A DNA stretch of 64,000 bases from Meandrina meandrites (lineage: Eukaryota > Cnidaria > Anthozoa > Scleractinia > Meandrinidae). The notes under the pieces were generated by a model, which saw only the letters and a program-made list of their open reading frames with translations, was not told where the DNA came from and searched no databases. A program made the translations under genes and the position numbers. The DNA is taken from the NCBI GenBank assembly GCA_963693305.1, contig OY855914.1:17174899-17238898 (forward strand). Direction: 5' to 3'. Of this stretch, positions 35,724 through 54,376 are shown piece after piece. Position 1 is the first letter of the stretch. Each line of letters opens with the position of its first letter.

Positions 35724-35753
35724 AGTAGTAAAGGGGGGCCCTTTGGTCTGTAA

Positions 35754-35836
35754 CCAATCAGAGAGCCGTATTTAGCCCACGTGACCGGTCTAGACCAATC
35801 AGAGGAGAGCGTGACGTCATTCGGTCGCCTAGCAAC
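35754..35836. promoter_or_regulatory. Terminal CCAAT / E-box / CRE / X-box cluster
   Basis: Within 83 bp of DNA starting 30 bp from the element end are CCAAT (35754-35758), CACGTG (35778-35783), CCAAT (35795-35799), TGACGTCA (35812-35819) and an RFX-type X-box GTCGCCTAGCAAC (35824-35836). The order X-box, CRE, CCAAT read on the minus strand resembles the RFX/CREB/NF-Y modules of animal promoters. The cluster is repeated at the other end (about 54264-54346). A role in transcription from the TIR is inference. Confidence 0.5.
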
Positions 35837-35990
35837 CAAGGGGATTGGAATGCGGAAGTGAGGTGACCGGAAACGGAAGTCACGTGAGCGGAAACGGAAA
35901 CGGAAACGAGACCTGAATTTCAAACATGATTTTGTTATTTATTCAAAAGAATAACATTACAACAGAAGGGTTTGGGTTAACAGCACTTGA

Positions 35991-36577
35991 AGCACCTACA
36001 GAGACCCGAAAGAAAACAATAATGAACACACTCAAAGCCGCGACTGTCTTAAGAAGGTGCAGAAAACAAAGTGTCTGAAAAACGACAGTTTTTTCCTGAT
36101 TATCGAGTGCAAGTCACCGAGACCCCATAAAGTTTGTTTCTACCAAGGTGAGTGCAGAAGAAAGGCGAAGACGTAACTAGATTCTTCGTGAGCTGGAACC
36201 GCAAAGAGAATCCTATGTGATTTGGAACAACAAAAATGCGACGAAGCAATGGCTGCAAGTACTTTTCATCCATCTCCAGCTTCTAATTCTCTTCTTCTTC
36301 CATTTCGGATGCAGGATGGAATTACAAGATCAATACAACCACTGAATGCATCACAGAGGTTTGGGAAGCAACGGAGGTTATTTTGAATGCATGGAAAGAT
36401 TATCAACCAACAAAAGAAGAAAGAATGAGTCACAATATCATCATGCTGGATATGAACAGTGCCGCGAGTGAAAATGTCAGTGTACATGGTTGGAAGTCCA
36501 TACTAGGGAGTTTCCAGGTCGCATCCGCTCACTGCATGCACGGACCCTCAAGGCCTAAAAGAAATCCTCACCAGTAG
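35991..36577 (+). CDS. Possible spliced TIR-encoded protein (partial)
   Basis: An open frame at 35991-36147 ends at a donor (CAAG|GTGAGT). A 167 nt intron contains CTAAT and a pyrimidine tract before GCAG at 36311-36314. Joining to 36315-36577 keeps one frame, about 139 codons to TAG. The sequence includes SFFLIIECKSPRP and a Trp-rich part (EVWEATEVILNAWKDY). I recognise no family. No ATG precedes it in the first exon, so an upstream exon would be needed. Because it lies in the TIR, the element carries two copies; the second is at 53523-54109 on the minus strand. Frame conservation across the junction could be chance. Confidence 0.3.
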
Positions 36578-36727
36578 CGTAGGTGCGCTGCATGGTTTAC
36601 CACAGGAGTTTTATGGATCAAGTAATAGATCATGTTCTAAATTATCCTCGTTTTAATTAATTCAAAATGGCCGCCAATAAAAGTTCGAGAAATCGCGTGA
36701 GGTGCTAACGAACACGACAAGGTGCTG

Positions 36728-36805
36728 ATTTGCATTACGAGGTGCACGGATCACATGGTCACGTGACCAATTTGTATGTTAGGGACAACGCCCTGTGACG
36801 TCACA
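36728..36805. promoter_or_regulatory. Octamer, E-box and CRE palindromes in the TIR
   Basis: An exact octamer ATTTGCAT (36728-36735), the palindrome GGTCACGTGACC (36757-36768) and the palindrome TGTGACGTCACA (36794-36805) lie within 78 bp. A second ATGGCCGCC-containing motif precedes them at about 36666. The right TIR has the same block at about 53294-53372, with one base changed next to its E-box. Such density of animal transcription-factor sites suggests an enhancer. Confidence 0.45.
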
Positions 36806-37239
36806 GCCTCGCTCGGATGTTAGGTAGTCTCGCTTGGGCGTGCATAATTAATGACCTGACTTGAAGGGTGGAAAAATTTGACGCATCGGCTTAATTTTAT
36901 CATCAAGTAGATTCAGATTTTAATAAAGGTTAACGCGCGTTACCGCCCGCCGCCCGCTAGCAAGGAAATCATCAAAATCAAAACATTTTTTGTTGGATAT
37001 GTAGTACAAGTAAGCGAGCGATCGATTGTACATGTACAAGTTCTCGCTGCCCGTACCACAAGTGTGAGCAAAACGTGTTAACAAATTGATGCAACGAAGA
37101 CGAACAACAATGCTCGCGTGCACTCGTTTTGCGAGTCTTAAATTGTGTCAGCTTCGGTTCCCAGGTAAGTTTTAATTTTTTTTCCCGAACTGTTTTAATT
37201 TTCGCTGAACTGTTGTCGTTCATTTAAGGACCTTGAAAA

Positions 37240-38035
37240 AATTGTTTTTCCTTCGAGAAGAATGGCAAAACGAAGCGCACGCCGAATTATATTTTTGCCG
37301 AACGGTAAAATTACAAGAGAGCCGCCAACACATTCGTCTAGGGTTAAAAACGTGAAAACTTTCGTTCGATGGCTAGTTTTAATTGTGGCTGAGCTGTTGT
37401 CATTGATAGTTGGACGTCGTTCGAAGTGAGGGCTGTGAAAAAAATTGTTGTTCCTTCGAGAAGAATGGCAAAACGAAGCGCACGCTGAATTATATTTTTG
37501 CCGAACGGCAAAATCGCAACAGAGTTGTTGACGTATCGGCTTAAAGTTTAAAACGTGAAAATTTTCGTTCGATGGCTAGTTTTAATTGTGGCTGGACTGC
37601 TGTCATTCATAGTTGGGCGTCCTTCGAAGTGAGGGCTGTGAAAAAAATTTTTTCCTTCGAGAAGAATGGCAAAACGAAGCGCACGCTGAATTATATTTTT
37701 GGCGAACGGCAAAATCGCAACAGAGTTGTTGACGTATCGGCTTAAAGTTTAAAACGTGAAAATTTTCGTTCGATGGCTAGTTTTAATTTTGGTTGAACTG
37801 TTGTCAGTCATAGTTGGGCGTCCTTCGAAGTGAGGGCTGTGAAAAAAATTTTTTCCTTCGAGAAGAATGGCAAACGAAGCGCACGCTGAATTATATTTTT
37901 GGCGAACGGCAAAATCACAACAGAGTTGTTGACGCATCGGCTTAAAGTTTAAATCGTGAAAACGTTCCTTCGATGGCTAGTTTTAATTTTGGTTGAACTG
38001 TTGTCAGTCATAGTTGAACGTTCCTTCGATGTGAG
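37240..38035. repeat. ~198 bp tandem array in the left TIR, four units
   Basis: Units begin near 37247, 37457, 37653 and 37855 (TCCTTCGAGAAGAATGGC) and each contains a hairpin TTTTGCC-GAAC-GGCAAAA or a close variant. The right TIR has three units (52266-52870). A diverged fifth copy lies outside the TIR at about 39430-39540. Iterated hairpins near a terminus could serve replication or packaging; this is inference. Confidence 0.75.
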
Positions 38036-38633
38036 GATCGCCAAAAGAAATAGAAAGCCATTGGAAGCGCGGTTGTGAGTATGAAAAACAATCAGCCGAG
38101 CGAGCAACTTCGCTCAACTGATTTACTGCAGAGAGACGACTTGTCTGTCAAGTGTAATAAAATTCGAGTTCGTGTTATTTAGGCAATCGACAAAAAGCTA
38201 ACAATAGGAACCAACGGGTCTAAAACCTTATTTTTCGGCGATCACAAGAGGAAATGTAACACAAACTACTCGTCAAGATTTGTGGTGAAACTGAATTTAT
38301 TTCCTTCGTTCACGCTTAAAATACAATCCAGCCAACGCTCTCCGTTTCGTACACAGTGAAAAAAAGAAGCAGCTTACCTTGAACCTCGTAACCTTCTCGA
38401 ATTAAACGCGTTCGCTTCCCAAATAATCAACCGAGAGAAAGAACAAGAGTCTGTAGGTTTTTCTGAGAATGTTACTCGAGATTCCGAGAAAAACACGCGA
38501 GCCCCTCCGCGCGCGTGCAGGGGTTAGGCAGGGGTCTGGATCTGAGGTGTCTCGTGCGCCTGCGTGTGAGTGAAAAACGTACCGTGAACGTAAGAGAGCG
38601 CACCACAAGTGCGAGCAATGAAGACGTGAGCAA

Positions 38634-38641
38634 TATATAAG
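38634..38641 (+). promoter_or_regulatory. TATA box in the left TIR, inward-facing
   Basis: TATATAAG about 130 bp upstream of the structured element. The motif is partly symmetrical, so outward transcription is also possible; an outward donor (AAG|GTAAGC on the minus strand) lies near 38374-38379. Copy in the right TIR at about 51657-51664. Confidence 0.45.
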
Positions 38642-38767
38642 GCTGAATGGTACTTGGGATAGGCAAGTTCGCAAATTCGGGGGGGTCTAGGGGGTTGAGA
38701 GTTGGCCACTTTCTGTACCCTGTTGGACGACTCGTGCGATGGCGAATGACGGAGCGGTGGTGGGGTT

Positions 38768-38961
38768 CCGGCTCCAACAGGGGTGTGCTCGAGATCTCTT
38801 CGGAGATCTCACCCACGGTCCCAGTGGTTAAATGGGAGGAAAGTCCTAGCCGTGGGGCTAGGCAAAAGTCCTAGCCGGTGAGGCTAGGCAAAAAGTCCTA
38901 GCCCGGGGGGTAGGCGAGAACGGCCAACGAGCACACCCCGACCGGGGTTTTTGTCTTTTTT
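38768..38961 (+). ncRNA. Cloverleaf-like structured element, left TIR copy
   Basis: A perfect 12 bp stem (GGGGTGTGCTCG 38780-38791 with CGAGCACACCCC 38928-38939) closes a multi-branched domain. Inside are an 8 bp stem with TTCG loop (38791-38810), a CCAC/GTGG hairpin, two perfect 7 bp CCTAGCC/GGCTAGG hairpins (38845-38862, 38870-38888) and a third, imperfect one (about 38897-38914). The domain is followed by CCCCGACCGGGG and T5/T6 runs (38936-38960), resembling a terminator. It lies downstream of a TATA box. It could be a structured RNA, a leader, or a DNA element used in replication or packaging. I know no family that matches. Confidence 0.55.
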
Positions 38962-39093
38962 CAATGTAGCAAACCGGACTACGCATGCGTGTGGGTAAAA
39001 CTGCGACGGGGGACAAAGGAGAGCGCACCACAAGTCAGAGCGCGGTACACGGCACGACTAGACGTGCGTGGAAACTCCTGTGTTGCATCGAAA

Positions 39094-39600
39094 CTTCTCT
39101 TCATAATCCTTTTCTCTTGTGCACAGGGTCACATCTGTTAGCAATCAGCCCTGGGGTTGTTTTGTCGCCTAGCCTGTCCAGCAAATTTTTTTGTGTGCTT
39201 CTCTTTATGAAAGGCACATCCAAGAGAGAATTAATTAATTAATTCAAAATGGCTGTAATGAACTGCTAAAGAGATCATGAATAAATCATGTTGAGAAAAC
39301 AATTGAAGAATTATTCGGTGGTAACAACTTAAGGAGGGGGAGGGAAACCTTAGGCACAAATTGATTCAATAAAAACGAAAAGCAAGAACAACAACAATTC
39401 TTCCTGCGCTAAACTTTATTTTTCGATCGGCAATATTTAAAATGTGAGGGCTTTCGTTGAATGGCTAGTCTTTTTTCGTGGAGTGTTGTTATTTATAGTT
39501 GGCCATTCGTTCGGTTTTAGAGCAATGAAAAATTGCTTGCCAAGAAAAAACAATGCAAGATCCTGAATGCGATGCACTACCGCTGCCCTATTCAAGTGGA
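39094..39600. other. Inner boundary region, no gene
   Basis: Contains an acceptor-like TTTTCTCTTGTGCACAG near 39110-39126, an (AATT)n-like stretch before AAAATGGC at 39226-39252, and a diverged copy of the TIR array unit (about 39430-39540). The ATTAATTCAAAATGGC motif also occurs inside the TIR at about 36654. This region therefore looks like an older, decayed duplicate of TIR sequence. Confidence 0.5.
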
Positions 39601-39617
39601 TGCGTTACAAAACGATG

Positions 39618-39625
39618 TATATAAA
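39618..39625 (+). promoter_or_regulatory. TATA box
   Basis: TATATAAA lies 49 bp upstream of the ATG at 39674, a fitting distance for an RNA polymerase II core promoter with a short leader. Confidence 0.6.
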
Positions 39626-39673
39626 CGACACGACTAGGAAGAAACTATCATAAATTTCAAGCACACACAGGAG

Positions 39674-40105
39674 ATGGAAGACGAAGGTAAGAAAAGCCCT
39701 TTCTTTGAATTCGAGTTGGAACCATTTAGAACTCGCGAAGCTAGAAGTTATGGCCTCAGACGAACGAGTTACCATCTCCGTGTACGTAATCCACCCGAGA
39801 CAAGACCTGTTGAACATGTCAGCATCATCAGGCAATTCGAAGAAGGACTGGCCGAAGCCATAGATAAACTGGTGGAAGATTTACCGGACCATGATCGGCT
39901 ACAGATTTATATAGCATCCAGACGATTGAGAAGTGCGCATACGTCGGCCAATGTCACAGTGGGAACTTGGAGAAACTTTTTGGAACCTGCCAGGCAAATA
40001 CTAAGCGCCATTTCCAGAATGTTGAACTCAAATGAGAATTTTGATGTTGACGACAGCATGGAGCTAGACCTAACGCACATAACTATGCGTTCACCAGAGA
40101 CCTAA
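39674..40105 (+). CDS. Stand-alone PolB-associated N-terminal domain protein, 143 aa
   Basis: The protein begins with an acidic, Phe-rich segment (FFEFELEPFRTREARSYGL) and ends with a conserved-looking block (HTSANVTVGTWR, then MLNSNENF). From what I know of Polinton proteins, this kind of domain usually forms the N-terminus of the large protein that carries the DNA polymerase. Here it stops at 143 residues and no polymerase follows. It has its own TATA box and an AATAAA at 40308-40313, so it looks like a complete short gene and not a cut end. Function unknown; retention suggests a role separable from polymerization. Confidence 0.55.
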   Translation: MEDEGKKSPFFEFELEPFRTREARSYGLRRTSYHLRVRNPPETRPVEHVSIIRQFEEGLAEAIDKLVEDLPDHDRLQIYIASRRLRSAHTSANVTVGTWRNFLEPARQILSAISRMLNSNENFDVDDSMELDLTHITMRSPET

Positions 40106-40401
40106 AAGAAGGAAGTTCTGAACAAAAGGCTAGAAAATAAGTAAAAAGAAAATGGTCCCCAAACCCCTAGACGTTGGACCTGCCTAGCGTGGACGTAAGA
40201 AGAAGGTTCTCACACCACCTCCGGAAGAAGACATAGCCAAGCCAGTGGAAAATCAAGGAAACGCCCTCCAAGGCACCGAGACCCCATGAAATGTTTTTCA
40301 ACATGTAAATAAAAAGTCATTTTGAACACATTTAGCGTCCAAACCTTGGGTAGAAAACGTATTTAGAGAGGTGTGGCGGATTCTCCTTGTCGAAAACGGG
40401 C

Positions 40402-41475
40402 ATGAAGAAGAAAGAGAAAAACCTACTCTCCAGCTACCACGATCCATCTGAGCCAGGTAGCCTGGGAGGAATCCAGAGATTCGCCAAGGCTCGACGCGTC
40501 CCCGTCCAAAAAGCCAGAGAGGTCTTGGAACGCGATTTGGGGTACACCCTTCACAAACCACGAAGAAAACGGTTTCCTACCACACCCGTATTGGTGTTTA
40601 ACATCGACCAACAATGGGTCGCAGATCTCGTGGAAGTCCAGACCCTGGCCAAATACAACAAGGGGAACCGATACCTGCTAAACGTGATCGACGCCCTGTC
40701 CAAATACGCCTGGGTAGAACCATTGAAAAACAAGACGGGTAAAGTCGTGACTGACGCCTTTGCCAAGATTTTGAAACGAGCCGACGGACGCAAGCCTCAA
40801 AAACTACAAACAGATGACGGTAAAGAGTTTTACAACAAGACGTTCGCCACGTTGATGAAACAGGAAGGCATCCATCACTTTTCCACGGCCGGGGACACGA
40901 AAGCCAGCATTGTGGAACGTTTCAATCGGACTCTCAAAGAACGCATGTACCGCTATTTCACCGCTAAGAACACACTGAGCTACTTACCCGTACTACAGAG
41001 TTTGGTCAAAGGCTACAATGGCACCTATCATCGCAGTATCGGTATGCCCCCCGAGAAAGTGAGGGTGAGCAACGAGGGGGAAGTGTGGAATCGGCTCTAC
41101 GCCAAGAGATTGTCGGGAAAGAAACCCAAACGCGGATCGATGATGAAGGTGGGAGACGGAGTGAGACTGAACAAGAAATTTCGTACTTTCGAGAAAGGGT
41201 ACTTGCCAGGGTGGACCGAAGAAGTGTTCACGATACGCGATGTACGACCCGGACCCCCCGTCACCACTTACAAGGTCAAAGAGTTCGACGACACCCCGGT
41301 ACGAGGTACTTTTTACAAGGAGGATCTACAGAAGGTCACGGTGTCTGACGACGACATCTTCAGAGTGGACAAGATCGTCAAGCGCAAAGGAGATAAAGTC
41401 TTGGTGCACTGGAAAGGCTGGCCAGACAAATACGACAGTTGGATCGAGAAGCGTGCCATTCGCAAATTGACGTGA
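40402..41475 (+). CDS. Polinton integrase with chromodomain, 357 aa
   Basis: Retroviral-type integrase (rve) that should cut and join the element's ends to host DNA. An N-terminal helical segment (SLGGIQRF... TLHKPRRKRF) leads to the catalytic core with D75 (WVADLVE), D138 (LQTDDGKEF) and E172 (ASIVERFNRTLKERM). An SH3-like stretch follows, and a C-terminal chromodomain (about 315-353; VHWKGWPDKYDSW) probably targets modified histones. I start at the first ATG; upstream in-frame codons lack one. The stop shares one base with the next gene's start (TGATG). The ORF is intact and complete. Confidence 0.93.
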   Translation: MKKKEKNLLSSYHDPSEPGSLGGIQRFAKARRVPVQKAREVLERDLGYTLHKPRRKRFPTTPVLVFNIDQQWVADLVEVQTLAKYNKGNRYLLNVIDALSKYAWVEPLKNKTGKVVTDAFAKILKRADGRKPQKLQTDDGKEFYNKTFATLMKQEGIHHFSTAGDTKASIVERFNRTLKERMYRYFTAKNTLSYLPVLQSLVKGYNGTYHRSIGMPPEKVRVSNEGEVWNRLYAKRLSGKKPKRGSMMKVGDGVRLNKKFRTFEKGYLPGWTEEVFTIRDVRPGPPVTTYKVKEFDDTPVRGTFYKEDLQKVTVSDDDIFRVDKIVKRKGDKVLVHWKGWPDKYDSWIEKRAIRKLT

Positions 41476-42497
41476 TGAGTGAAGACGGGTTTTACGTGAC
41501 GTTGCCCAGTCACAGCAATCGAAAAGAGTTTCCAGAGAACAGAGCCAATTCTTTCAAGGTCCGACTACCTTACCCACTACGATTGGAAGGATCGGGATGG
41601 AGAGTGGGGCTGAGTAGCATCTCTGTGCCAGACGCCAGCATCGACTTGAACCGTTTCAAATCGCTCAAATTCCCTCTTTTGAGCGTTCAGTGGATGCTCA
41701 AACGCCGAGGTGATGGTGGTAAGCTGCAAGACAGGTCGTTGACTGCCCATCTAACGTTCCAGGACATTCTGCATGACGACAACATCGTGGACGGTCTCAG
41801 CTTCATGAAAGCCCTCGTCTTCAAGTTTGATCAAGTCAAAGAGTTCAAGCGTAACGTCGGCGATATGACAGAATCAGTCAGCGGAAAGAAGTGGGAATTC
41901 ACGTTCAAGTGGGAAGGTGAAGAATTGGTCCTCGACAACTCGAATTTAGACGTCTCCGAAGTGAAAACGGAAGGCATCCCATACTTCATGTCGTTCAACG
42001 AAGAGTTGGCCTTCGACATGGGATGGATCAAAAAGAATGAGAAGGAAATCGTGGTTCTCGGGCCGAACCTGAGGCCAGAATGTGACCACACGACGATACC
42101 TGATCCCATAGACGTGGACGATTTTTCAGACGGCAAGAAACTATTCTGGAGTAACGAGAACGGACAACTTTTTTTGAGTTGTTATTGCAACTGGCACTTC
42201 ACGAATTTGAACAGAGCCTTCCAAAAAGTTATAGGTGATGCGTCACGCACGCTCTTCATCTACTCGGACGTGAGCGGTAGTTCCGTGGTAGGTAATCAAG
42301 TCACGGATCTGTTGCGCGAAATTCACTTTCGACGTGAGGGACAAGGCATCAAGTACTTCGAACCCCTCCACATCCAATATATTCCGCTGCGTAACCAAGT
42401 GGTGGACATTATCGAAACGCAAGTCAGCGAGACCACAGGGAAGCTGGTGAATTTCGGGAAAGGCGACACGACCGTGACGTTACATTTCAAACGATGA
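41475..42497 (+). CDS. Penton-like minor capsid protein, 340 aa
   Basis: The N-terminus (DGFYVTLPSHSN, then FKVRLPYPLRLEGSGWRVGL) matches what I recall of the conserved protein encoded beside the major capsid gene in animal Polintons. That protein is thought to be the single-jelly-roll penton that fills capsid vertices. The position between integrase and major capsid protein fits. The start ATG overlaps the integrase stop by one base, and the stop overlaps the next ATG in an ATGA. Alternatives are a different virion protein with a beta-sandwich fold; a structure prediction would settle it. Confidence 0.65.
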   Translation: MSEDGFYVTLPSHSNRKEFPENRANSFKVRLPYPLRLEGSGWRVGLSSISVPDASIDLNRFKSLKFPLLSVQWMLKRRGDGGKLQDRSLTAHLTFQDILHDDNIVDGLSFMKALVFKFDQVKEFKRNVGDMTESVSGKKWEFTFKWEGEELVLDNSNLDVSEVKTEGIPYFMSFNEELAFDMGWIKKNEKEIVVLGPNLRPECDHTTIPDPIDVDDFSDGKKLFWSNENGQLFLSCYCNWHFTNLNRAFQKVIGDASRTLFIYSDVSGSSVVGNQVTDLLREIHFRREGQGIKYFEPLHIQYIPLRNQVVDIIETQVSETTGKLVNFGKGDTTVTLHFKR

Positions 42498-42748: not shown

Positions 42749-42969
42749 ATCCCATTTACTCGCGATCGTCGAGACTGGTCCGCTCGAAACGCGCACCCGT
42801 CAGACAACGCGGGGAAGGAGGTATTCCGTTGGCCGTCTTGGCATACGCGTTGAGCAAGAGTAAAGGAAAAGTACAAAAAGGCGGGTGGATCGCCCCGCAA
42901 GTCAGAAAACCTCCTGACTACGATTGGATACAGACCCTGCAGAAGCAGAGAAGAAGAAAAAGAAGATGA
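42745..42969 (+). CDS. Small basic virion protein, 74 aa
   Basis: Strongly basic, with a short Ala/Leu-rich segment (GGIPLAVLAYALSK), a candidate protease site VQKGG|W in the middle and an Arg/Lys-rich tail. It is linked by ATGA overlaps to the gene before and to the major capsid gene after. Likely a DNA-condensing or capsid-lining peptide; no specific homologue recognised. Confidence 0.55.
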   Translation: MNPIYSRSSRLVRSKRAPVRQRGEGGIPLAVLAYALSKSKGKVQKGGWIAPQVRKPPDYDWIQTLQKQRRRKRR

Positions 42970-44369
42970 CTGACGTCGTCCCGGAGGCTCATCCACAGTC
43001 GGAAGCCATGGCCAGCCCCTTATTGGATTTGTTCAGACTTCCGTCGACGGACGTCAGCGTATCTTCCTATCGGCTAGTCCCCATTCAGACCTACACCTCG
43101 GGTATCAATCCCGTCGAGTTTCAGATAGACCCACAAGAAGATTACATCGATCTCTATCGTAGCTTCTTCGAGATAGAATTGCAACTGAAGAAAGTGAACG
43201 GCGATGACCTGGCGGTTGCCGACAAGCTGTGGCCCGTGAACAATCTGGCCCATTCTCTGTTCAAACAGATCAGCGTGCGCTTTAACGGGGCTCTCATCAG
43301 TCCCCAGACAGACACGTACCATTACAAAGCCTACTTGGAAACCCTGATGAATTATGACAGGAACGACGGAGAGACTGTCTTGAAACCTCAAGGATGGTAC
43401 AGCGCCCTAGATTTTCCAGTCACCTTCACTGCTAACAACACCACTGTAGACCTAGATGGTGGAAATCCTCATGGACATTACACGGCCCTCCCTCAAAATC
43501 ACAAAGACTCCATCTTGCTCATGAAAAAAGAACAGGACCATTACACTGGCAACAAGCGACACGTGTTACGGTTCAAACCTCACATCGAAGTCTTTCATCT
43601 AAACAAGCTCTTGGTGCCCAGAGTGCAGATCGGGATACAGATGTACTTCAATTCTCCAGCCCTGTTCTTGAATGGAGTAGGTGAAGCCGGACGAATGACG
43701 ACCGAAGATGTCACAGTTCGAATGTACCTGTGTCAAGTGCGACCCAATCCCACCACGTACAGGAACCTGATGACCAAGATGGAAGTGGAGAAAGCATTGG
43801 TGGCCTACCCCACCGTGAGAAGCGAGATTCGTACTTTCAACATGCAAGGCAACCAACAACAGTACGAATGCAACAACTTGTTCCAAGGAAGGGTTCCCAA
43901 TCGATTGATCGTGGGCATGGTGTTGTCGACGGCGTTCACGGGTACCGTGACCAATGATCCCTTCTGTTTTCAGAAATTTGGACTGAGTAGCATACGACAG
44001 ATCGTGCGAGGAGAAGAGTATCCTTACGAGACCCTAGAATTGGTGCACAACAACGACACCAAAGATCTCAGAGGTTACTTTCGCTTCCTCCAAGCCACCG
44101 GGTGCCTGAGCCAACATCGAGGAAACATGGTGAAGAGCGACGAGTGGGGACAAGGCAAGAATTGCACGCTTTTCGCATTTGACAACGTCGCCAACGGATG
44201 CCTGGACAGCAACAGGTTGAACCCGAGACAAGTGGGAGATCTACAAATTGTGCTGAATTTTGGAGCGGCCCCAGGTCAGAACCTGACCATCATACTGTAC
44301 GGAGAATTCGAGAATCTGTTGGAGATAGACAAGAACAAAGCGGTGTTATACGACGTGTACCAGCGCTGA
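42966..44369 (+). CDS. Major capsid protein, double jelly-roll, 467 aa
   Basis: This is the trimeric double jelly-roll capsid protein that builds icosahedral shells of Polinton-type viruses. Recognisable features are the N-terminal beta strand region (VSSYRLVPIQTYTSG), EDYIDLYRSFFEIEL, the signature WPVNNLAHSLFKQISVRFNG and YHYKAYLETLMNYD. Length is in the usual range. The ATG at 42966 overlaps the preceding stop as ATGA; I prefer it to any upstream start because no earlier in-frame ATG exists. Protease follows after 2 bases. The frame is uninterrupted. Confidence 0.92.
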   Translation: MTDVVPEAHPQSEAMASPLLDLFRLPSTDVSVSSYRLVPIQTYTSGINPVEFQIDPQEDYIDLYRSFFEIELQLKKVNGDDLAVADKLWPVNNLAHSLFKQISVRFNGALISPQTDTYHYKAYLETLMNYDRNDGETVLKPQGWYSALDFPVTFTANNTTVDLDGGNPHGHYTALPQNHKDSILLMKKEQDHYTGNKRHVLRFKPHIEVFHLNKLLVPRVQIGIQMYFNSPALFLNGVGEAGRMTTEDVTVRMYLCQVRPNPTTYRNLMTKMEVEKALVAYPTVRSEIRTFNMQGNQQQYECNNLFQGRVPNRLIVGMVLSTAFTGTVTNDPFCFQKFGLSSIRQIVRGEEYPYETLELVHNNDTKDLRGYFRFLQATGCLSQHRGNMVKSDEWGQGKNCTLFAFDNVANGCLDSNRLNPRQVGDLQIVLNFGAAPGQNLTIILYGEFENLLEIDKNKAVLYDVYQR

Positions 44370-44371
44370 GG

Positions 44372-44953
44372 ATGGAGAAAGTCGCTCTGAACAATGTGCA
44401 GTTGGATCATTTGGCCAAACATCACCCTTCGTTGGGACCCTACTTTCACGGGACGGTGGCCTGCGATCAATTACCTCGTCACCCCATCAAAACACAAGCC
44501 AGAGGGTACATCGTGAACACGGATCCGCACGACCTGCCTGGCAGACATTGGATCGCCCTGTGGACTTGCGACAACGTCTGCGAAGTGTTGGACAGTTACG
44601 CTTTACCGTTGGAGGTTTACGAGACGGCCCGACCATTGGAAGATTGGTTAAACACTCACTGGAAGTACGTGGTGTTTAACGGACAGAGTCTACAATCCGT
44701 GTACAATCAGAGTTGTGGCGATTACGCCTTGGTGTATCTGATCGATCGAGCCGAAGGGCGTAGCACGTGTCAATTCGAAGCAAGATTCAAGAAACACGAT
44801 TACCTGTATAACGACCATAAAGTAGGACAGATGTTGAAGAATTTAATCGCAAAGGAGACGATGTGGGACACCGTCTGTAAACTGAAATACCACCAAGATT
44901 GTAATGCTTCCTTAGGTGGTGTGAGGCACTTGTTAGGTAACAAAGACGAGTAG
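44372..44953 (+). CDS. Adenain-type cysteine protease, 193 aa
   Basis: Maturation protease of the C5/Ulp1-like clan. The catalytic residues are visible in order: H59 (GRHWIALW), D74 (EVLDSYALP), Q105 or Q108 (FNGQSLQ) and C115 (NQSCGDYAL). It should process virion precursors at xxGG|x or xxGx|G sites, several of which occur in the neighbouring small proteins. It starts two bases after the capsid stop and is the last gene of the first same-strand run. Confidence 0.9.
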   Translation: MEKVALNNVQLDHLAKHHPSLGPYFHGTVACDQLPRHPIKTQARGYIVNTDPHDLPGRHWIALWTCDNVCEVLDSYALPLEVYETARPLEDWLNTHWKYVVFNGQSLQSVYNQSCGDYALVYLIDRAEGRSTCQFEARFKKHDYLYNDHKVGQMLKNLIAKETMWDTVCKLKYHQDCNASLGGVRHLLGNKDE

Positions 44954-45006: not shown

Positions 45007-45039
45007 TCTTTCTCCTTGTTTTCGACGTTGTCATTCGAT

Positions 45040-45696: not shown

Positions 45697-45709
45697 GTTG
45701 AGGGGAAAC

Positions 45710-46210
45710 ATGTCGATACATAGTTATTCGCCAGCGGGTGTGGGAACAGGATCGTTTGTCAAGGACGACGACGACGATGTTCGAGCCGAGTTGGGCGCGG
45801 TATACGAGGCAGCCACCACGAGAGCATACTTGGACATGATGTTACAAGAAATGGCGGCAGGACGTCACATTGCAGGTATCACCACCGCGAATGCCATTAT
45901 CACCACTTACAAAGACGGCGGGCGGCGTACTTGGAGGAGAGTCACAACGACAAAAAAAGACAAGGTATCTCCGTCTAAAGTGTCAGGAACGAGGAGGATG
46001 GCGAGAAAGAAACGCGAGACCAAGAAAAGCAAGAGTCAACGGGGCGGGGCTCTTGCGAGACATAAACCTTTTTTGGTGGACAAAATCGCCGAGGGGGACA
46101 GCATGTTTCTGTCAGGATCTTCGCCTACGTTCTTGACGTTGTCCAGTCAAGCATTTAAGGGGGTGAACGACAATGTAAATCACTCTAGCCGCAGACCACG
46201 ACGGCGTTAG
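45710..46210 (+). CDS. Basic virion-associated protein, 166 aa
   Basis: An acidic stretch near the start (VKDDDDDVRAEL) gives way to a Lys/Arg-rich central part (MARKKRETKKSKS) and a candidate protease site SQRGG|A. A Ser/Thr-rich tail ends RRPRRR. It follows the ATPase by 13 bp. I do not recognise a family; a cleaved core protein is the simplest reading. Confidence 0.5.
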   Translation: MSIHSYSPAGVGTGSFVKDDDDDVRAELGAVYEAATTRAYLDMMLQEMAAGRHIAGITTANAIITTYKDGGRRTWRRVTTTKKDKVSPSKVSGTRRMARKKRETKKSKSQRGGALARHKPFLVDKIAEGDSMFLSGSSPTFLTLSSQAFKGVNDNVNHSSRRPRRR

Positions 46211-46214
46211 GACC

Positions 46215-46499
46215 ATGGGGAGAAAGCAACGCGTGGGGCAACGAAGGAAACGTAGGCACAGGAAAAGAATAGGACAAAAAGGAGGCCTTTTACCTTTGGC
46301 AGCCTTGATACCCGCTCTGGTTGCGGCTGGAAAAGCGGCCGCTCTGGGGGCTGCCTCTGGGGCAGCCGGTTGGGGTGCCAAGAAAGCCTTGAACGCGGCC
46401 ACTCGAAAGAAACCCGCAGCCTCGCCCGCCCAAATCCGCCAGTTGAAAAAAACACTTCGACTCGGGAATACCAGGAGCATCATGGCCAATGCATTATAA
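46215..46499 (+). CDS. Small basic/hydrophobic virion protein, 94 aa
   Basis: A very basic leader (about 25 residues) ends in GQKGG|LLPLAALIPALV, i.e. an adenain-like site followed by a hydrophobic Ala/Gly-rich segment that could be membrane-active. The protein then becomes basic again. This layout resembles adenovirus pX/pVI-type precursors, in which the protease releases a membrane- or DNA-binding peptide. It starts 4 bp after the previous stop. Confidence 0.6.
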   Translation: MGRKQRVGQRRKRRHRKRIGQKGGLLPLAALIPALVAAGKAAALGAASGAAGWGAKKALNAATRKKPAASPAQIRQLKKTLRLGNTRSIMANAL

Positions 46500-46540
46500 G
46501 AGGACAAGTGCCACAGGTAGTGACGTGAGATGGGAAAGGT

Positions 46541-46903
46541 ATGAAGCGATTACGTCGACAACGTCCATTTTTGGAGGCCATTCTGAAAGAAGCCAATCGG
46601 AACAAGCGAGAAGAGATGTTGCAACACGCCAACGCCGACCAAATCAACGCCGTGAGCGAGATGGTGTTGAATTTGCTCAAGAATCGCGTTCCAATCTCTC
46701 CTCCCCTCACCGCCAAGCTGAGACGGTACAGAGATTCTTTACGTGAACTGGGGAAGCGTGGAAACTCCTTGAAGAGAACGCGAAAGAAACTCATCTCTCA
46801 GAAGGGTAGCGGGTTTTGGAAAGGATTACACCAGGTACAAGGCATGTCACTGCAAGACGAGAGTGCTTTAAAAATACGACTCGAGGTGCTGCAAGGGCAT
46901 TAA
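46541..46903 (+). CDS. Conserved Polinton virion protein with C-terminal protease site, 120 aa
   Basis: A helical N-terminal part (LEAILKEANRNKREEMLQ, then VLNLLKNRVPISP) is followed by basic KLRRYRDSLRELGKRG and a candidate site SQKGS|GFW. I recall proteins of this shape from other animal Polintons, with a similar KRxSxKxxR...QKGG end, but their function is not known. A core protein is likely. Complete, with ATG at 46541. Confidence 0.55.
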   Translation: MKRLRRQRPFLEAILKEANRNKREEMLQHANADQINAVSEMVLNLLKNRVPISPPLTAKLRRYRDSLRELGKRGNSLKRTRKKLISQKGSGFWKGLHQVQGMSLQDESALKIRLEVLQGH

Positions 46904-46927
46904 ACGTCGAGAAGAGTCGACGAAAGC

Positions 46928-47545
46928 ATGGCCGAAGAAGTGATGATGGTACCGACCAAAGACTTTGAACGAATGGTGCAATATTACAAAGGCGAAATCA
47001 CCGACAATGCTTTGCTGAACAAGGCGGCTCGTCTGGCGGCCGAAAGTCACCTGTTGCTCAAAGACCAATCCCTTCCTGACGGCATCGCGATGGCCCGAGT
47101 GAAGCCCATCGCTCGCGAACGTGCCCGATTGACCAAACGAATACGGCAATTTCCTTCAGCCAGGGCTGCGGGCGGCGAAGCTCCCGAGGAAGAAGAGGAA
47201 GAAGAGGACGGTTTGGTGACGGGACCTCTGTACAACATGATGAAACAAATCATAAAAGGAAGTGCCAAGAAATCGCCGTCTTCAATCACCACCAAGCGAA
47301 GCACTACACCAGAAGCAGGGCCTTCGTCGTCTGTACCTACTCCCAAACGGAAAACATCTTCCGAGCGGCTGGAGGAACTCCGCCAACGAAGTGTGACCAT
47401 TCGAAAGGAATTCGAAAAGAAAGCAGAAAAATTAAAGAAACACAAGACCGAAGCTGAGAGACTGAAACCACTGCCCGGTTGGGAAGATTGGGCCAAAGGG
47501 AAAAAATTGAGACGAGAATTGGAATATGACGAGGAGGACGACTAG
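46928..47545 (+). CDS. Conserved Polinton protein of unknown function, 205 aa
   Basis: The N-terminal half contains a well-ordered block (DNALLNKAARLAAESHLLL, then VKPIARERARLTKRIRQ) that I associate with a widespread unassigned Polinton family. A Glu-run, a Ser/Pro-rich linker and a C-terminal coiled-coil-like stretch follow. It overlaps the next gene by 20 bp. Possible roles are scaffold or DNA-binding structural protein; neither is shown by the sequence. Confidence 0.55.
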   Translation: MAEEVMMVPTKDFERMVQYYKGEITDNALLNKAARLAAESHLLLKDQSLPDGIAMARVKPIARERARLTKRIRQFPSARAAGGEAPEEEEEEEDGLVTGPLYNMMKQIIKGSAKKSPSSITTKRSTTPEAGPSSSVPTPKRKTSSERLEELRQRSVTIRKEFEKKAEKLKKHKTEAERLKPLPGWEDWAKGKKLRRELEYDEEDD

Positions 47546-47876
47546 AAAGAAGACGAGACGCCAACGTGGACGTGGTGTCGACATTCAGAAATGGATCGGC
47601 AAGACCGGGCTCGAATTTCATTGGCCAGGGTATCAGTACATGGGTCCCGGGACAAAATTGGAAAAGCGATTGAAACGTGGTGACCCTGGGATCAACCGGC
47701 TGGACCGCATTGCCAAACAGCACGACATCGATTACAGTCGCGCAAAGAATTTGCAAGACAAGTGGAAAGCGGACGAGAAGATGATCAAGGCGATTGACAG
47801 GCTCCCGGGCAAGCGCATGATGACCGAGAGAATTGTTAAGAAAATTATGCAAGCCAAGAAAAGATTGAAACTGTAA
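47526..47876 (+). CDS. Parvovirus-type phospholipase A2-like protein, 116 aa
   Basis: The calcium-loop motif YMGPG (38-42) and the catalytic HD dyad with its context DRIAKQHDIDY (60-70) match the secreted/parvoviral PLA2 fold. Such domains let non-enveloped virions breach endosomal membranes. A basic N-terminus carries RRQRGR|G, which fits the adenain pattern xxGx|G and could release the enzyme. The start lies inside the preceding gene (20 bp overlap). Last gene of the second run; AATAAA follows at 47897-47902. Confidence 0.8.
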   Translation: MTRRTTRKKTRRQRGRGVDIQKWIGKTGLEFHWPGYQYMGPGTKLEKRLKRGDPGINRLDRIAKQHDIDYSRAKNLQDKWKADEKMIKAIDRLPGKRMMTERIVKKIMQAKKRLKL

Positions 47877-47981: not shown

Positions 47982-48575
47982 ATGCAGCGCCAAGACCTGA
48001 CAGCCAATGTGTGCTTGATCCTTGACTTGGAAGGGTACTTTTTACGGAAACAGTTTTATGCCCGCGAGCTGGGCTGGTGCGATTGGGAGGGCCGATTTGG
48101 TGTACTACACTATCAACAACCCTACCGATGGAAAACGCTCAACAGTGTGGACCGACACACGGCCATTTACGTGTACCACCGCGTTCACGGACTACCATTT
48201 GAAGATCCACCCGAAGAAAATGTTCGTCCTCTGGACAACCTGAAAGGAGACGTTCTAGAACTCTACGAACAGAGTAGGACCCCTGAGCGATTCTTGGTGG
48301 CTTATAAGGGGGGTCACGTCGAAAGGAATTTGTTGAGAGAGCTGGATCTTCCCGCCACCAACTTGGAACATGCCGGATGTCCCAAATTTGAGCGCTTGGA
48401 GATCTACCCTATTCAAGACTGTGGGCAGCATAGAACACGAGGACATTGTGCCATGGTAGAGTGCCAAGCGTTTTGGCAGTGGATGAAACCCGACAGCGAC
48501 CCGTGGGGACCGGACAGCGGCGGCAGCGAACAGTTGCGCATGGCCCGAAGACCTTGGCTTTTAGACAGAAAATAA
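47982..48575 (+). CDS. Possible DEDD-type nuclease-like protein, 197 aa
   Basis: The sequence opens with a hydrophobic strand ending in DLEG (D15, E17). Later it shows VAYKGGHVERNLLREL and GHCAMVECQAFWQWM, an order of acidic and His residues that resembles RNase H-fold 3'-5' exonucleases. I recall related proteins in cnidarian mobile elements, without a proven function. It is driven by its own TATA box. Its stop codon lies inside the AATAAA at 48571-48576. Confidence 0.45.
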   Translation: MQRQDLTANVCLILDLEGYFLRKQFYARELGWCDWEGRFGVLHYQQPYRWKTLNSVDRHTAIYVYHRVHGLPFEDPPEENVRPLDNLKGDVLELYEQSRTPERFLVAYKGGHVERNLLRELDLPATNLEHAGCPKFERLEIYPIQDCGQHRTRGHCAMVECQAFWQWMKPDSDPWGPDSGGSEQLRMARRPWLLDRK

Positions 48576-48609: not shown

Positions 48610-48628
48610 CTTAAAACAGGTTGACAAG

Positions 48629-49249
48629 TCACTTGATTAAAAAAGCAAGTCTTTTCTGTAGTTCTTCGTTTCCAATGGTTAAAGGTACGTCTGCCCACTG
48701 GAAAAATCGGCACCCTTTTCTGTTTCGGCAGGCATAGTAGGGCCGGTTAAAATTGGCTTCGGATCGGCTCACTTTCAGACTGGCCTGGTTGTTACACTCG
48801 CATTTAATGTTTCCTTGCATGGTGTAGTAACCGCCATCCACCTTGGTGTAGATTGTCGTCATGTAAGGGATCACATCTTTGCTGTGAGTGAACAGACCGC
48901 AGGGCAAGAGAGCACACTTCACATAGTGGTCTTTGTTTTTGACGGCTTGAAACACGGTTAAGTTGCAGTGATGAAAAGGGCACACGTTCAGGTCATAGCT
49001 CGGTTTTTCCTCCACGACTTCTGTCTGTATTGACTGGGGTTGGCCTGTCAAGAGGCTATCTAGCAAATCTGCCATGGCTTGCTCGCCGTCGTCTCCTTGT
49101 TGTTGTGCAGGAATGGTAGGTTTCAAGACTTGCAAAGATGGCGGTGCTTCTTGTTTCTTGGTTTTCTTGAGTTTTTTCTTGTCCTTCTCGGAAGGCTGTA
49201 GTCTGTCCACCATGTTTTGCATGGCTTGTAACGATCTCTTCTGATTCAT
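48629..49249 (-). CDS. GRF zinc-finger protein, 206 aa
   Basis: The C-terminal third contains a zf-GRF-like unit (CECNNQASLKVSR, NRPYYACRNRKGCRFFQW), known to bind single-stranded nucleic acid in nucleases and repair factors. A further Cys/His set (CPFHHCNLTVFQ, KCALLPCGLF) lies before it. The N-terminus is Lys/Gln-rich. I choose the ATG at 49249 because a TATA-like ATATAAT lies 46-52 bp upstream (49295-49301); an in-frame ATG pair also exists at 49321-49324. It may protect or process DNA during replication. Confidence 0.7.
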   Translation of the reverse strand: MNQKRSLQAMQNMVDRLQPSEKDKKKLKKTKKQEAPPSLQVLKPTIPAQQQGDDGEQAMADLLDSLLTGQPQSIQTEVVEEKPSYDLNVCPFHHCNLTVFQAVKNKDHYVKCALLPCGLFTHSKDVIPYMTTIYTKVDGGYYTMQGNIKCECNNQASLKVSRSEANFNRPYYACRNRKGCRFFQWADVPLTIGNEELQKRLAFLIK

Positions 49250-49294
49250 GTTTGTGACTGACGCAAAAGAGAACGAACGGTACCTGCGTCGTTG

Positions 49295-49301
49295 ATTATA
49301 T
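49295..49301 (-). promoter_or_regulatory. TATA-like box for the GRF gene
   Basis: ATATAAT on the minus strand, overlapping the last codons of the upstream gene. It supports the shorter reading of the GRF gene. Confidence 0.4.
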
Positions 49302-49843
49302 GGCTTGCTCTTCGATCCCATCATTCATTGATGAATGAAAATCCACTTCGTCCAATCCTGACCAGAAGCGGTTGTCATCTGACCGACTTCTCATCCAATC
49401 AAGAATCTCATCGATGTCTTGGTGATGTAATCCCAACAACTCGTACGTGAAGGCGAGGCCTTGCTTGTTGAAAGACATGATCTCCGTCAACGTCACCTCG
49501 GTGTTCTTGACGGGAGTCGTCATGCGTTTGATGAAATCAAAATCGTCGTGATTGAAGTGGGCGTGAACCACACCGTTCTTGTCCATCAACCCTTTCCACG
49601 TGTCGTAGTCTTCGCCAAAGACCAACGACTTTAGCCCTCTCCAGATCTTGTCTTGTGTGTCTAACACGTGCTGAAATGAATCGACCGAGTAAATGGTGTG
49701 ACACGCAGGTTCCAAGTTTTCTTTCTCGTGGATCACTTTTTCCAAGCCTCGCTGGTGATTTCAAGATGGAAATTACTGCACTGTACGACGCTCCCATCTC
49801 GTCGGACAGGATCTTCCGGCACGTCGTCCATCGAGTGAGCCAT
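49296..49843 (-). CDS. Polinton protein of unknown function, frame break near its start
   Basis: An ATG at 49843 opens a frame that stops at TGA (49733-49735) right after an A5 run. The -1 frame is open from just before that point for 149 codons down to 49296 and has no ATG until residue 54. The long part (DNGVV-like region, then DFDFIKRMTTPVKNTEVTL and FTYELLGLHHQDID) looks like one globular acidic protein that I cannot name. Either programmed -1 frameshifting on AAA AAG, a sequencing or real single-base loss in the A-run, or internal initiation would explain the layout. Confidence 0.5.
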
Positions 49844-50865: not shown

Positions 50866-50889
50866 GTATGAAAAGCACTTCTCAATACG

Positions 50890-51138: not shown

Positions 51139-51362
51139 GAAAAAGGTCTCCCATATTTCAGAAACGAAGAACTCCACTGGAGCTGTAGACTTCTTGGCCA
51201 AAGTTTTGAGCAGTATGGTGTTCAGTAAGTTTCGATGCAACACAGGAGTTTCCAAGCACGTCTAGTCATGCCGTGTACCGCGCTCTGACTTGTGGTGCGC
51301 TCTCCTTTGTCCCCCGTCGCAGTTTTACCCACACGCATGCGCAGTCCGGTTTGCTACATTGA

Positions 51363-51532
51363 AAAAAGACAAAAACCCCGGTCGGGGTGTGCTCGTTGGC
51401 CGTTCTCGCCTAGCGCCCCCGGGCTAGGACTTTTTGCCTAGCCTCACCGGCTAGGACTTTCCTCCCATTTAACCACTGGGACCGTGGGTGAGATCTCCGA
51501 AGAGATCTCGAGCACACCCCTGTTGGAGCCGG
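51363..51532 (-). ncRNA. Cloverleaf-like structured element, right TIR copy
   Basis: The 12 bp closing stem is intact (51384-51395 with 51509-51520), as is the 8 bp hairpin (51490-51509, loop CGAA on the + strand, TTCG on the minus). Two internal CTAGCC-type hairpins remain; the last is perfectly paired here (CCTAGC/GCTAGG) but imperfect in the left copy. The T-runs lie at 51361-51375 on the complementary strand, so a transcript would read inward. Confidence 0.55.
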
Positions 51533-52265
51533 AACCCCACCACCGCTCCGTCATTCGCCATCGCACGAGTCGTCCAACAGGGTACAGAAAGTGGCCAACT
51601 CTCAACCCCCTAGACCCCCCCGAATTTGCGAACTTGCCTATCCCAAGTACCATTCAGCCTTATATATTGCTCACGTCTTCATTGCTCGCACTTGTGGTGC
51701 GCTCTCTTACGTTCACGGTACGTTTTTCACTCACACGCAGGCGCACGAGACACCTCAGATCCAGACCCCTGCCTAACCCCTGCACGCGCGCGGAGGGGCT
51801 CGCGTGTTTTTCTCGGAATCTCGAGTAACATTCTCAGAAAAACCTACAGACTCTTGTTCTTTCTCTCGGTTGATTATTTGGGAAGCGAACGCGTTTAATT
51901 CGAGAAGGTTACGAGGTTCAAGGTAAGCTGCTTCTTTTTTTCACTGTGTACGAAACGGAGAGCGTTGGCTGGATTGTATTTTAAGCGTGAACGAAGGAAA
52001 TAAATTCAGTTTCACCACAAATCTTGACGAGTAGTTTGTGTTACATTTCCTCTTGTGATCGCCGAAAAATAAGGTTTTAGACCCGTTGGTTCCTATTGTT
52101 AGCTTTTTGTCGATTGCCTAAATAACACGAACTCGAATTTTATTACACTTGACAGACAAGTCGTCTCTCTGCAGTAAATCAGTTGAGCGAAGTTGCTCGC
52201 TCGGCTGATTGTTTTTCATACTCACAACCGCGCTTCCAATGGCTTTCTATTTCTTTTGGCGATCC

Positions 52266-52870
52266 TCACATCGAAGGAACGTTCAACTATGACTGACAAC
52301 AGTTCAACCAAAATTAAAACTAGCCATCGAAGGAACGTTTTCACGATTTAAACTTTAAGCCGATGCGTCAACAACTCTGTTGTGATTTTGCCGTTCGCCA
52401 AAAATATAATTCAGCGTGCGCTTCGTTTTGCCATTCTTCTCGAAGGAAAAAAATTTTTTCACAGCCCTCACTTCGAAGGACGCCCAACTATGACTGACAA
52501 CAGTTCAACCAAAATTAAAACTAGCCATCGAACGAAAATTTTCACGTTTTAAACTTTAAGCCGATACGTTAACAACTCTGTTGCGATTTTGCCGTTCGGC
52601 AAAAATATAATTCAGCGTGCGCTTCGTTTTGCCATTCTTCTCGAAGGAAAAACAATTTTTTTCACAGCCCTCACTTCGAACGACGTCCAACTATCAATGA
52701 CAACAGTTCAGCCACAATTAAAACTAGCCATCGAACGAAAGTTTTCACGTTTTTAACCCTAGACGAATGTGTTGGCGGCTCTCTTGTAATTTTACCGTTC
52801 GGCAAAAATATAATTCGGCGTGCGCTTCGTTTTGCCATTCTTCTCGAAGGAAAAACAATTTTTTCAAGGT
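52266..52870. repeat. ~198 bp tandem array in the right TIR, three units
   Basis: Counterpart of the left array, with one unit fewer. Unit boundaries are marked by CCATTCTTCTCGAAGGAAA near 52431, 52634 and 52839. Confidence 0.7.
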
Positions 52871-53522
52871 CCTTAAATGAACGACAACAGTTCAGCGAAA
52901 ATTAAAACAGTTCGGGAAAAAAAATTAAAACTTACCTGGGAACCGAAGCTGACACAATTTAAGACTCGCAAAACGAGTGCACGCGAGCATTGTTGTTCGT
53001 CTTCATTGCATCAATTTGTTAACACGTTTTGCTCACACTTGTGGTACGGGCAGCGAGAACTTGTACATGTACAATCGATCGCTCGCTTACTTGTACTACA
53101 TATCCAACAAAAAATGTTTTGATTTTGATGATTTCCTTGCTAGCGGGCGGCGGGCGGTAACGCGCGTTAACCTTTATTAAAATCTGAATCTACTTGATGA
53201 TAAAATTAAGCCGATGCGTCAAATTTTTCCACCCTTCAAGTCAGGTCATTAATTATGCACGCCCAAGCGAGACTACCTAACATCCGAGCGAGGCTGTGAC
53301 GTCACAGGGCGTTGTCCCTAACATACAAATTAGTCACGTGACCATGTGATCCGTGCACCTCGTAATGCAAATCAGCACCTTGTCGTGTTCGTTAGCACCT
53401 CACGCGATTTCTCGAACTTTTATTGGCGGCCATTTTGAATTAATTAAAACGAGGATAATTCAGAACATGATCTATTACTTGATCCATAAAACTCCTGTGG
53501 TAAACCATGCAGCGCACCTACG

Positions 53523-54109
53523 CTACTGGTGAGGATTTCTTTTAGGCCTTGAGGGTCCGTGCATGCAGTGAGCGGATGCGACCTGGAAACTCCCTAGTAT
53601 GGACTTCCAACCATGTACACTGACATTTTCACTCGCGGCACTGTTCATATCCAGCATGATGATATTGTGACTCATTCTTTCTTCTTTTGTTGGTTGATAA
53701 TCTTTCCATGCATTCAAAATAACCTCCGTTGCTTCCCAAACCTCTGTGATGCATTCAGTGGTTGTATTGATCTTGTAATTCCATCCTGCATCCGAAATGG
53801 AAGAAGAAGAGAATTAGAAGCTGGAGATGGATGAAAAGTACTTGCAGCCATTGCTTCGTCGCATTTTTGTTGTTCCAAATCACATAGGATTCTCTTTGCG
53901 GTTCCAGCTCACGAAGAATCTAGTTACGTCTTCGCCTTTCTTCTGCACTCACCTTGGTAGAAACAAACTTTATGGGGTCTCGGTGACTTGTACTCGATAA
54001 TCAGGAAAAAACTGTCGTTTTTCAGACACTTTGTTTTCTGCACCTTCTTAAGACAGTCGCGGCTTTGAGTGTGTTTATTATTGTTTTCTTTCGGGTCTCT
54101 GTAGATGCT
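53523..54109 (-). CDS. Second copy of the possible spliced TIR protein
   Basis: Mirror copy of 35991-36577 in the right TIR, with the same donor and acceptor on the minus strand. Same doubts apply: no ATG in the first visible exon and no recognised family. Confidence 0.25.
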
Positions 54110-54263
54110 TCAAGTGCTGTTAACCCAAACCCTTCTGTTGTAATGTTATTCTTTTGAATAAATAAAAAAATCATGTTTGAAATTCAGGTCTCGTTTCCGT
54201 TTCCGTTTCCGCTCACGTGACTTCCGTTTCCGGTCACCTCACTTCCGCATTCCAATCCCCTTG

Positions 54264-54346
54264 GTTGCTAGGCGACCGAATGACGTCACGCTCTCCTCTG
54301 ATTGGTCTAGACCGGTCACGTGGGCTAAATACGGCTCTCTGATTGG
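54264..54346. promoter_or_regulatory. Terminal CCAAT / E-box / CRE / X-box cluster, right end
   Basis: Mirror of 35754-35836: X-box (GTTGCTAGGCGAC), TGACGTCA, two CTGATTGG sites and CACGTG, in that order on the + strand. Confidence 0.5.
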
Positions 54347-54376
54347 TTACAGACCAAAGGGCCCCCCTTTACTACT

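What the first reader, a model, noticed from the sequence alone, without database searches (positions are those of the whole stretch)
35724..54376. Virion-encoding Polinton with no DNA polymerase, inserted in another element's DNA polymerase gene
Between near-identical TIRs I find integrase, capsid, penton-like, protease, ATPase and PLA2-like genes, all intact, but no family B polymerase motifs in any frame. The same element sits within the polymerase gene of a different PolB/integrase element (35212-35723 and 54377-57834). A capsid-bearing element that depends on, and damages, a polymerase-bearing one would be a satellite/helper system of a kind I do not know from animals. The alternative is a recent polymerase deletion in this copy only.
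Basis: partly seen in the sequence, partly recalled or inferred. Interest (0 to 1): 0.88.

Follow-up and report, generated by a model that had tools for sequence, protein, structure and literature searches.

The report
Polymerase-less Polinton family, probably a satellite
In what is probably a stony coral genome, a virus-like element that keeps its capsid genes but has lost its DNA-copying enzyme has nevertheless spread to many places, beside sister elements that still carry that enzyme, which suggests that it lives as a satellite of its sisters.

Summary
And it is no single damaged copy. The genome holds 20 elements with this capsid (98-100%): 13 have the standalone TP and no PolB found, five an open TP-PolB fusion of about 1,300 aa, two neither form. 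From the integrase on, the classes are about 96-99.5% identical, yet their TP genes only 68%, so this is not a recent deletion of the sister's polymerase. PolB-less copies sit at different sites (exact 6-bp duplications in 10 of 13), have ends 99.3-100% equal within a copy but a median 14% different between copies, share terminal sequences with PolB+ copies, and have about the same length because longer TIRs fill the gap. Best reading: a virion-encoding Polinton satellite with its own TP and origins that borrows PolB. Dependence is inferred. The insertion into another PolB looks incidental (0 of 19 flanks of other copies hit Polinton proteins).

The parts
35718..35723 (.). target-site copy, left (AACGGT)
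   Evidence: 5 of 6 bases equal to the right copy
35724..39096 (+). left TIR, 3.37 kb
37234..38036 (+). four tandem 201-bp units inside the left TIR
39674..40105 (+). standalone TP gene (143 aa): N-terminal terminal-protein domain of Polinton PolB
   Evidence: same domain opens 1.3-kaa PolB frames in sisters; AF2 fold nearest to Y-family polymerases, weakly
40289..40343 (.). module junction: identity to PolB+ sisters jumps from about 68% to 97-99%
40387..41475 (+). rve integrase with chromodomain
41439..42497 (+). 352-aa minor-capsid/penton-like protein (named by position only)
   Evidence: no family; open frame
42966..44369 (+). major capsid protein, double jelly-roll
44348..44953 (+). protease-position ORF (not confirmed by sequence)
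45016..45696 (+). packaging ATPase (Pox_A32 type)
45698..47545 (+). four small unknown ORFs
47526..47876 (+). phospholipase A2-like protein
47982..48575 (+). 197-aa unknown ORF
48629..49760 (-). GRF zinc-finger ORF (48629-49324) and overlapping unknown ORF (49296-49760)
51227..54376 (-). right TIR, 3.15 kb, with three 203-bp units at 52264-52866
54377..54382 (.). target-site copy, right (GACGGT)
54377..57834 (+). host PolB pieces of a distant element, interrupted by stops and a frame change

Best explanation
The element belongs to a young, multi-copy class of PolB-less Polintons that act as satellite viruses of near-identical PolB-bearing sisters in the same genome. It carries integrase, capsid, ATPase and probably the other virion genes, its own terminal protein (TP) as a separate gene, and replication origins in its termini. 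A PolB made by a sister (or another Polinton) would initiate on these termini, primed by the satellite's own TP or the helper's; the DNA would be packaged in the common capsid and integrated by the common integrase. Shown: no PolB found in 13 copies, the standalone TP, shared termini, shared virion module, similar genome length, independent integrations, homogenised ends, open PolB frames in sisters. Inferred: that replication is protein-primed, that PolB acts in trans, that virions form.
For: 13 of 20 elements with this capsid (>=98%) have the standalone TP and no listed PolB within 20 kb; 5 of 20 have fused TP-PolB frames of 1303-1313 aa (DNA_pol_B_2 E about 1e-42 in the two tested). Exact 6-bp duplications in 10 of 13 PolB-less (one of them inside a GATA repeat) and 5 of 5 PolB+ copies. 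First 590 bp of the two ends 99.3-100% equal within each of 10 PolB-less elements, between 11 elements median 85.6%, range 80.5-99.3%. Terminal 162 bp equally alike within and between classes (medians 90.7, 91.9, 91.3%). Lengths 18.65-20.02 kb (12 of 13 measurable) against 18.29-18.70 kb (5 of 5), with longer TIRs (window 3.37/3.15 kb, C10 3.29 kb, C8 2.2 kb left and 3.2 kb right) against 0.37-0.69 kb (5 of 5). TP kept: 7 synonymous to 4 nonsynonymous changes in 15 TP copies, p 0.007; fewer variable sites than its flanks.
Against: No expression, virion or trans-replication data. PolB-less left modules are all 97-100% alike, with no older relics found, so long persistence as a satellite is not shown here. 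The TP test rests on 11 changes, one of them a nonsense change. The TP differs by 27% in protein from the sisters', and protein-primed polymerases can be choosy about TP (recalled). Integrase still clusters by class (10 of 5000 label shuffles; the nearest neighbour of all five PolB+ integrases is PolB+), so module sharing may be one founding recombination rather than constant exchange. Some PolB-less copies have damaged genes: integrase full and stop-free in 10 of 12 sisters, the penton-position ORF in 10 of 12.
Confidence: 0.66

Rival explanations
1. Bipartite system: the standalone TP has its own TP-less vOTU-PolB partner encoded elsewhere, as in the Stylophora polinton in which TP and vOTU-PolB are separate genes; the element is one half of a split replication system rather than a satellite of the PolB+ sisters.
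For: A separate TP gene with a separate pPolB is reported for a Stylophora pistillata polinton (PMC11071308, passages read). The TP is 27% different from the sisters' TP.
Against: Of 11 PolB places at >=95% to the sister PolB, eight are fused to the other TP type in one frame, two have that TP in a broken frame nearby, one lacks TP; more distant PolBs were not examined for this. No listed PolB lies in a PolB-less element. Termini are shared with the PolB+ sisters.
Confidence: 0.12
2. Passive deletion derivative: a PolB+ element with this TP type lost PolB recently and was amplified like any non-autonomous transposon; virion and TP genes are intact only because it is young.
For: All copies are young. 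Non-autonomous forms exist: a 7.3-kb internally deleted element with the same ends and TSD.
Against: No PolB+ element or database PolB with this TP type was found (best 74% in this genome, 72% among the 8 database PolBs listed). Synonymous excess in TP among copies. TIR expansion restores genome length. A decayed database copy, P0144, shares the same TP ending.
Confidence: 0.14
3. Replication by host enzymes: the element copies itself through host DNA polymerases and its own integrase, with no need for a Polinton PolB.
For: PolB-less copies outnumber PolB+ copies of this capsid type 13 to 5; no helper dependence has been measured.
Against: End homogenisation within each copy, terminal sequences shared with PolB+ elements and retention of a TP gene all fit protein-primed replication.
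Confidence: 0.08

Closest known systems
Polinton/Maverick (Polintoviricetes; adintovirus-like)
   Same: rve-chromodomain integrase, double-jelly-roll capsid, A32-type ATPase, TIRs, 6-bp target duplications; near-identical PolB+ sisters in the genome
   Different: no vOTU, exonuclease or palm of PolB found; TP as a separate gene; TIRs of the window copy about five to nine times longer than in the five PolB+ sisters
Stylophora pistillata polinton with split TP (PMC11071308, passages read)
   Same: TP encoded by a separate gene, in a coral
   Different: that element also has vOTU-pPolB; this one does not
'Meldviruses' with adenovirus-class virion proteins but no recognisable PolB and integrase (PMC11071296, passages read)
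   Same: animal-associated Polinton-like virion genes without PolB
   Different: those also lack the integrase, and the example drawn there has a primase-helicase instead; here integrase and TP stay, no replacement replicase was recognised, and PolB+ sisters share the rest
Adenovirus TP/polymerase (split TP, inverted ends)
   Same: separate TP gene; capsid-coding linear genome with inverted ends
   Different: adenovirus encodes its own polymerase
Virophages and satellite polinton-like viruses of protists
   Same: capsid-coding small relatives of Polintons that use another virus
   Different: those keep their own replication polymerase and borrow a giant virus's other functions (recalled); here polymerase alone is missing and the presumed helper is a sister with the same capsid, in an animal

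Membership tests
[quoted passage not shown]
   window element. In 12 sister copies: left modules tested directly, whole intervals only against a list of the 72 best-scoring PolB places of 811 candidates. Only the TP domain remains
Polinton/Maverick | retrovirus-like integrase with chromodomain | tested here: met
   rve 1.4e-13; Chromo 8.3e-5 (22.9 bits, cut-off 25.1)
Polinton/Maverick | double-jelly-roll major capsid protein | tested here: met
   AF2 pLDDT 79, best Foldseek E 4e-16 to iridovirus capsid, then PBCV-1; mavirus MCP at 5.5e-13 (that these are double jelly-rolls is recalled)
Polinton/Maverick | genome-packaging ATPase | tested here: met
   Pox_A32 23.1 bits, cut-off 22.8
Polinton/Maverick | Ulp1-type cysteine protease and minor capsid protein | tested here: inconclusive
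   no match; only gene order fits
Polinton/Maverick | TIRs and 6-bp target duplication | tested here: met
   one mismatch in the window copy; exact in 10 of 13 copies of the class
Polinton TP domain | sequence homology to the N-terminal domain of Polinton PolB | tested here: met
   71-74% to the N-terminus of 1.3-kaa PolB frames
Polinton TP domain | PRD1-like TP fold related to Y-family little finger | tested here: inconclusive
Polinton TP domain | covalent link to the 5' end | not testable with these tools
   needs protein-linked DNA
Satellite virus | own capsid gene | tested here: met
   capsid gene in one piece without stops in 12 of 13 PolB-less copies (the thirteenth is split in two frames)
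Satellite virus | lacks an essential replication gene that a co-resident helper has | tested here: met
Satellite virus | multiplies only with the helper | not testable with these tools
   no expression or infection data

The most novel reading that the evidence does not exclude
An animal genome harbours a true satellite-helper pair of Polintons: a lineage that gave up its polymerase, kept a separate terminal protein and full virion genes, lengthened its ends so that its genome still fills the common capsid, and now outnumbers the polymerase-bearing helper whose PolB it uses.
Probability: 0.5. Interest if true: 0.9.

Novelty: new variant of a known kind. Interest (0 to 1): 0.78.

Why it matters
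Polintons are called self-synthesising because they carry PolB. A class that has spread without it, beside PolB-bearing sisters that share its capsid, integrase and ends, would be a natural complementation system within one animal genome. It makes open questions testable: whether Polintons replicate by protein priming in animals, whether they form virions with a size limit (the similar lengths suggest one), and whether TP and polymerase can be supplied separately. It also warns surveys that use PolB as a marker of an intact Maverick.

Tried and rejected
Scans of IMG/VR with the capsid, the TP and a capsid alignment gave no confirmed relative; tblastn in the phage collection gave none. Pfam and NCBIfam did not name the TP or capsid. 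Sequence searches of the capsid, a capsid profile and the protease-position ORF against PDB gave nothing below E 0.6. Host PolB relatives: two loci chosen proved too distant, and a search with a host PolB piece did not complete.

Considered and rejected: (1) PolB remnant hidden in the TIRs or after the TP stop (chance-level matches only, although two or three residues after the stop resemble the fused form); (2) targeting of PolB genes (0 of 19 flanks; the flanks are short and only this window's proteins and the sister PolB were queries); (3) a replacement polymerase in the right part: for the one PolB+ sister compared, that part is 95.9% identical, so it is not special to the PolB-less class; (4) segmental duplication: distinct target duplications.

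Dropped or partial: one search mixed strands and is void; one search replaces it, and its nine copies are among those nearest the window, a biased sample. In one search two of five PolB+ TPs fell below the blastn limit, one PolB-less integrase (C5:20761783, interrupted by an insertion of about 1.6 kb) was dropped, and L030, from a copy without TP, entered no row. One search compared ends of 10 (within) and 11 (between) of the 13 PolB-less elements. One search's PolB-less ends include the mirror element.

Papers: searches for PolB-less Polintons gave none; listings 19, 27, 47, 48, 83, 114 were seen as titles and starts of abstracts only, and many matches were not listed in 47 and 114. Passages were read in PMC11071308 (also section 6), PMC11071296, PMC8097293 and PMC6431247; the only PolB-less report seen is the one in PMC11071296.
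Full report
What was checked. The element lies at 35724-54376 and is bounded by long inverted ends, 35724-39096 and 51227-54376. It is flanked by AACGGT and GACGGT, a 6-bp duplication with one mismatch. Integrase, ATPase and PLA2 are named by Pfam, the capsid protein by its predicted fold: an AF2 model of pLDDT 79 whose best PDB matches are capsid proteins of iridovirus and PBCV-1, E 4e-16, with mavirus at 5.5e-13. The penton and protease labels are by position only. No PolB body was found in the element. The host is inferred to be a stony coral because the only named capsid relative in the list is from Oculina patagonica, 74%.

A two-class family. The genome (551 Mb, 56 contigs) holds 20 copies of this capsid gene at 98-100%, one of them in two pieces. 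Cross-mapping with TP and PolB places: 13 standalone TP and no listed PolB; 5 fused TP-PolB with open frames of 1303-1313 aa; 1 PolB piece without TP; 1 neither. A further, mirror-shaped element holds two standalone TPs. The PolB list was limited to the 72 best of 811 candidates, but direct tblastn of the sister PolB also found nothing in the left modules of the 12 other PolB-less copies nor in the right parts that were fetched for a few of them.

The junction. Against all five PolB+ copies, high identity (97-99%) begins at window position 40289 or 40343, between the PolB stop and the integrase; before it, TP matches at about 68%. Between classes, TP DNA is 67.8-68.9% identical (three of five PolB+ TPs entered), integrase 96.0-99.5%, the next gene 97.7-99.4%; the right part is 95.9% identical in the one pair compared. 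Synonymous divergence of TP between the classes is saturated while dN is 0.20. So the left module is old and distinct, the rest is shared. Class structure fades away from the junction: the within-minus-between difference is 31 points in TP, 1.34 in integrase, 0.22 in the next gene, and 0.6 and 0.2 for the capsid and the stretch after it in a smaller, biased set of nine. In integrase all five PolB+ copies have a PolB+ nearest neighbour, in the next gene three of five. This fits one founding recombination and perhaps later exchange. Conversely, the PolB module is also shared with elements whose capsid is only 42-43% alike, so modules move in this family.

Signs of mobility without PolB. Ten of 13 PolB-less copies have exact and different 6-bp duplications, one of them inside a GATA repeat; the window copy has one mismatch, one copy has 5 bp, one lacks the last 70 bp of its right end. 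The first 590 bp of left and right ends are 99.3-100% identical within each of 10 elements, while ends of different elements differ by a median of 14%, range 0.7-19.5%; one pair of ends is identical over 3,285 bp. Integrase and the next gene differ by about 1% between PolB-less copies, so ends seem to be renewed and exchanged during multiplication, as expected if linear DNA replicates from both termini (inference). The terminal 162 bp form one pool: medians 90.7% within PolB-less, 91.9% within PolB+, 91.3% between.

Length compensation. PolB+ elements measure 18.29-18.70 kb with TIRs of 0.37-0.69 kb (5 of 5). PolB-less elements measure 18.65-20.02 kb (12 of 13 with both ends; the longest has an insertion), although they lack about 3.4 kb of PolB. 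Their right end carries a copy of the left end: the TIRs are 3.37/3.15 kb in the window, 3.29 kb in the C10 copy, and 2.2 kb left against 3.2 kb right in the C8:29697133 copy, whose left end is rearranged; in seven others the ends agree as far as the pieces reach, 0.70-1.12 kb, and the right ends of all nine PolB-less sisters tested match inner TIR sequence that the five PolB+ right ends lack. A packaging size limit would explain this (inference).

Is TP still used? All 15 TP copies (13 elements and two in the mirror element) have the same frame length; one has a nonsense change. Among them are 7 synonymous and 4 nonsynonymous changes where neutral evolution would give 75% nonsynonymous (p 0.007), and in 13 copies TP has fewer variable sites per 100 bp (2.55) than the flanks (3.92, 4.64). 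Modest, but it speaks for use after PolB was lost. An unnamed, decayed database copy (P0144) ends in the same way and branches with this TP, which hints at greater age; it is protein only and was not found in this genome.

Limits. In this genome the left module is 97-100% identical in all copies found, with no older relics, so the class is young here. Several PolB-less copies have damaged genes. No expression or particle data were available. Dependence on PolB+ sisters is the simplest reading of anatomy, not a measurement. The insertion into a distant, interrupted PolB looks like chance.

Noticed in passing
G000 C9:16543058-16558059 (L028, L029, L070, L071): A 15.0-kb mirror element: two left halves in opposite orientation, a TP gene at each end, TSD CAAAAT; resembles foldback defective genomes of adenoviruses (recalled). 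A 200-N gap lies at the centre, so an assembly fault is possible.
   Followed up: partly
G000 C9:23022347-23029613 (L087): A 7.3-kb internally deleted element with the same ends and TSD TACTAT, without TP, integrase and capsid: mobilisation in trans, or a deletion after insertion.
   Followed up: partly
35730-35738 and 35745-35750, and the same sites in the other copies: A few terminal sites are hypervariable between elements within otherwise conserved ends, although the two ends of an element are nearly equal.
   Followed up: no
40152-40289: A small reading frame with an in-frame stop follows TP and is present, with that stop, in all 13 PolB-less copies compared.
   Followed up: no
57833-59213 and 62055-63745: Inverted near-copies (93-96%) with integrase-like pieces flank the host relic: a nest of rearranged Polinton remains.
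   Followed up: no
G000 C13:12878689-14857499: Eight distant TP-like frames (29-30%, open frames 208-248 aa) lie within 2 Mb on one contig, away from any listed capsid gene.
   Followed up: no
39426-39532: A diverged copy of the 201-bp TIR repeat unit (71-73%) lies just upstream of the TP gene.
   Followed up: no
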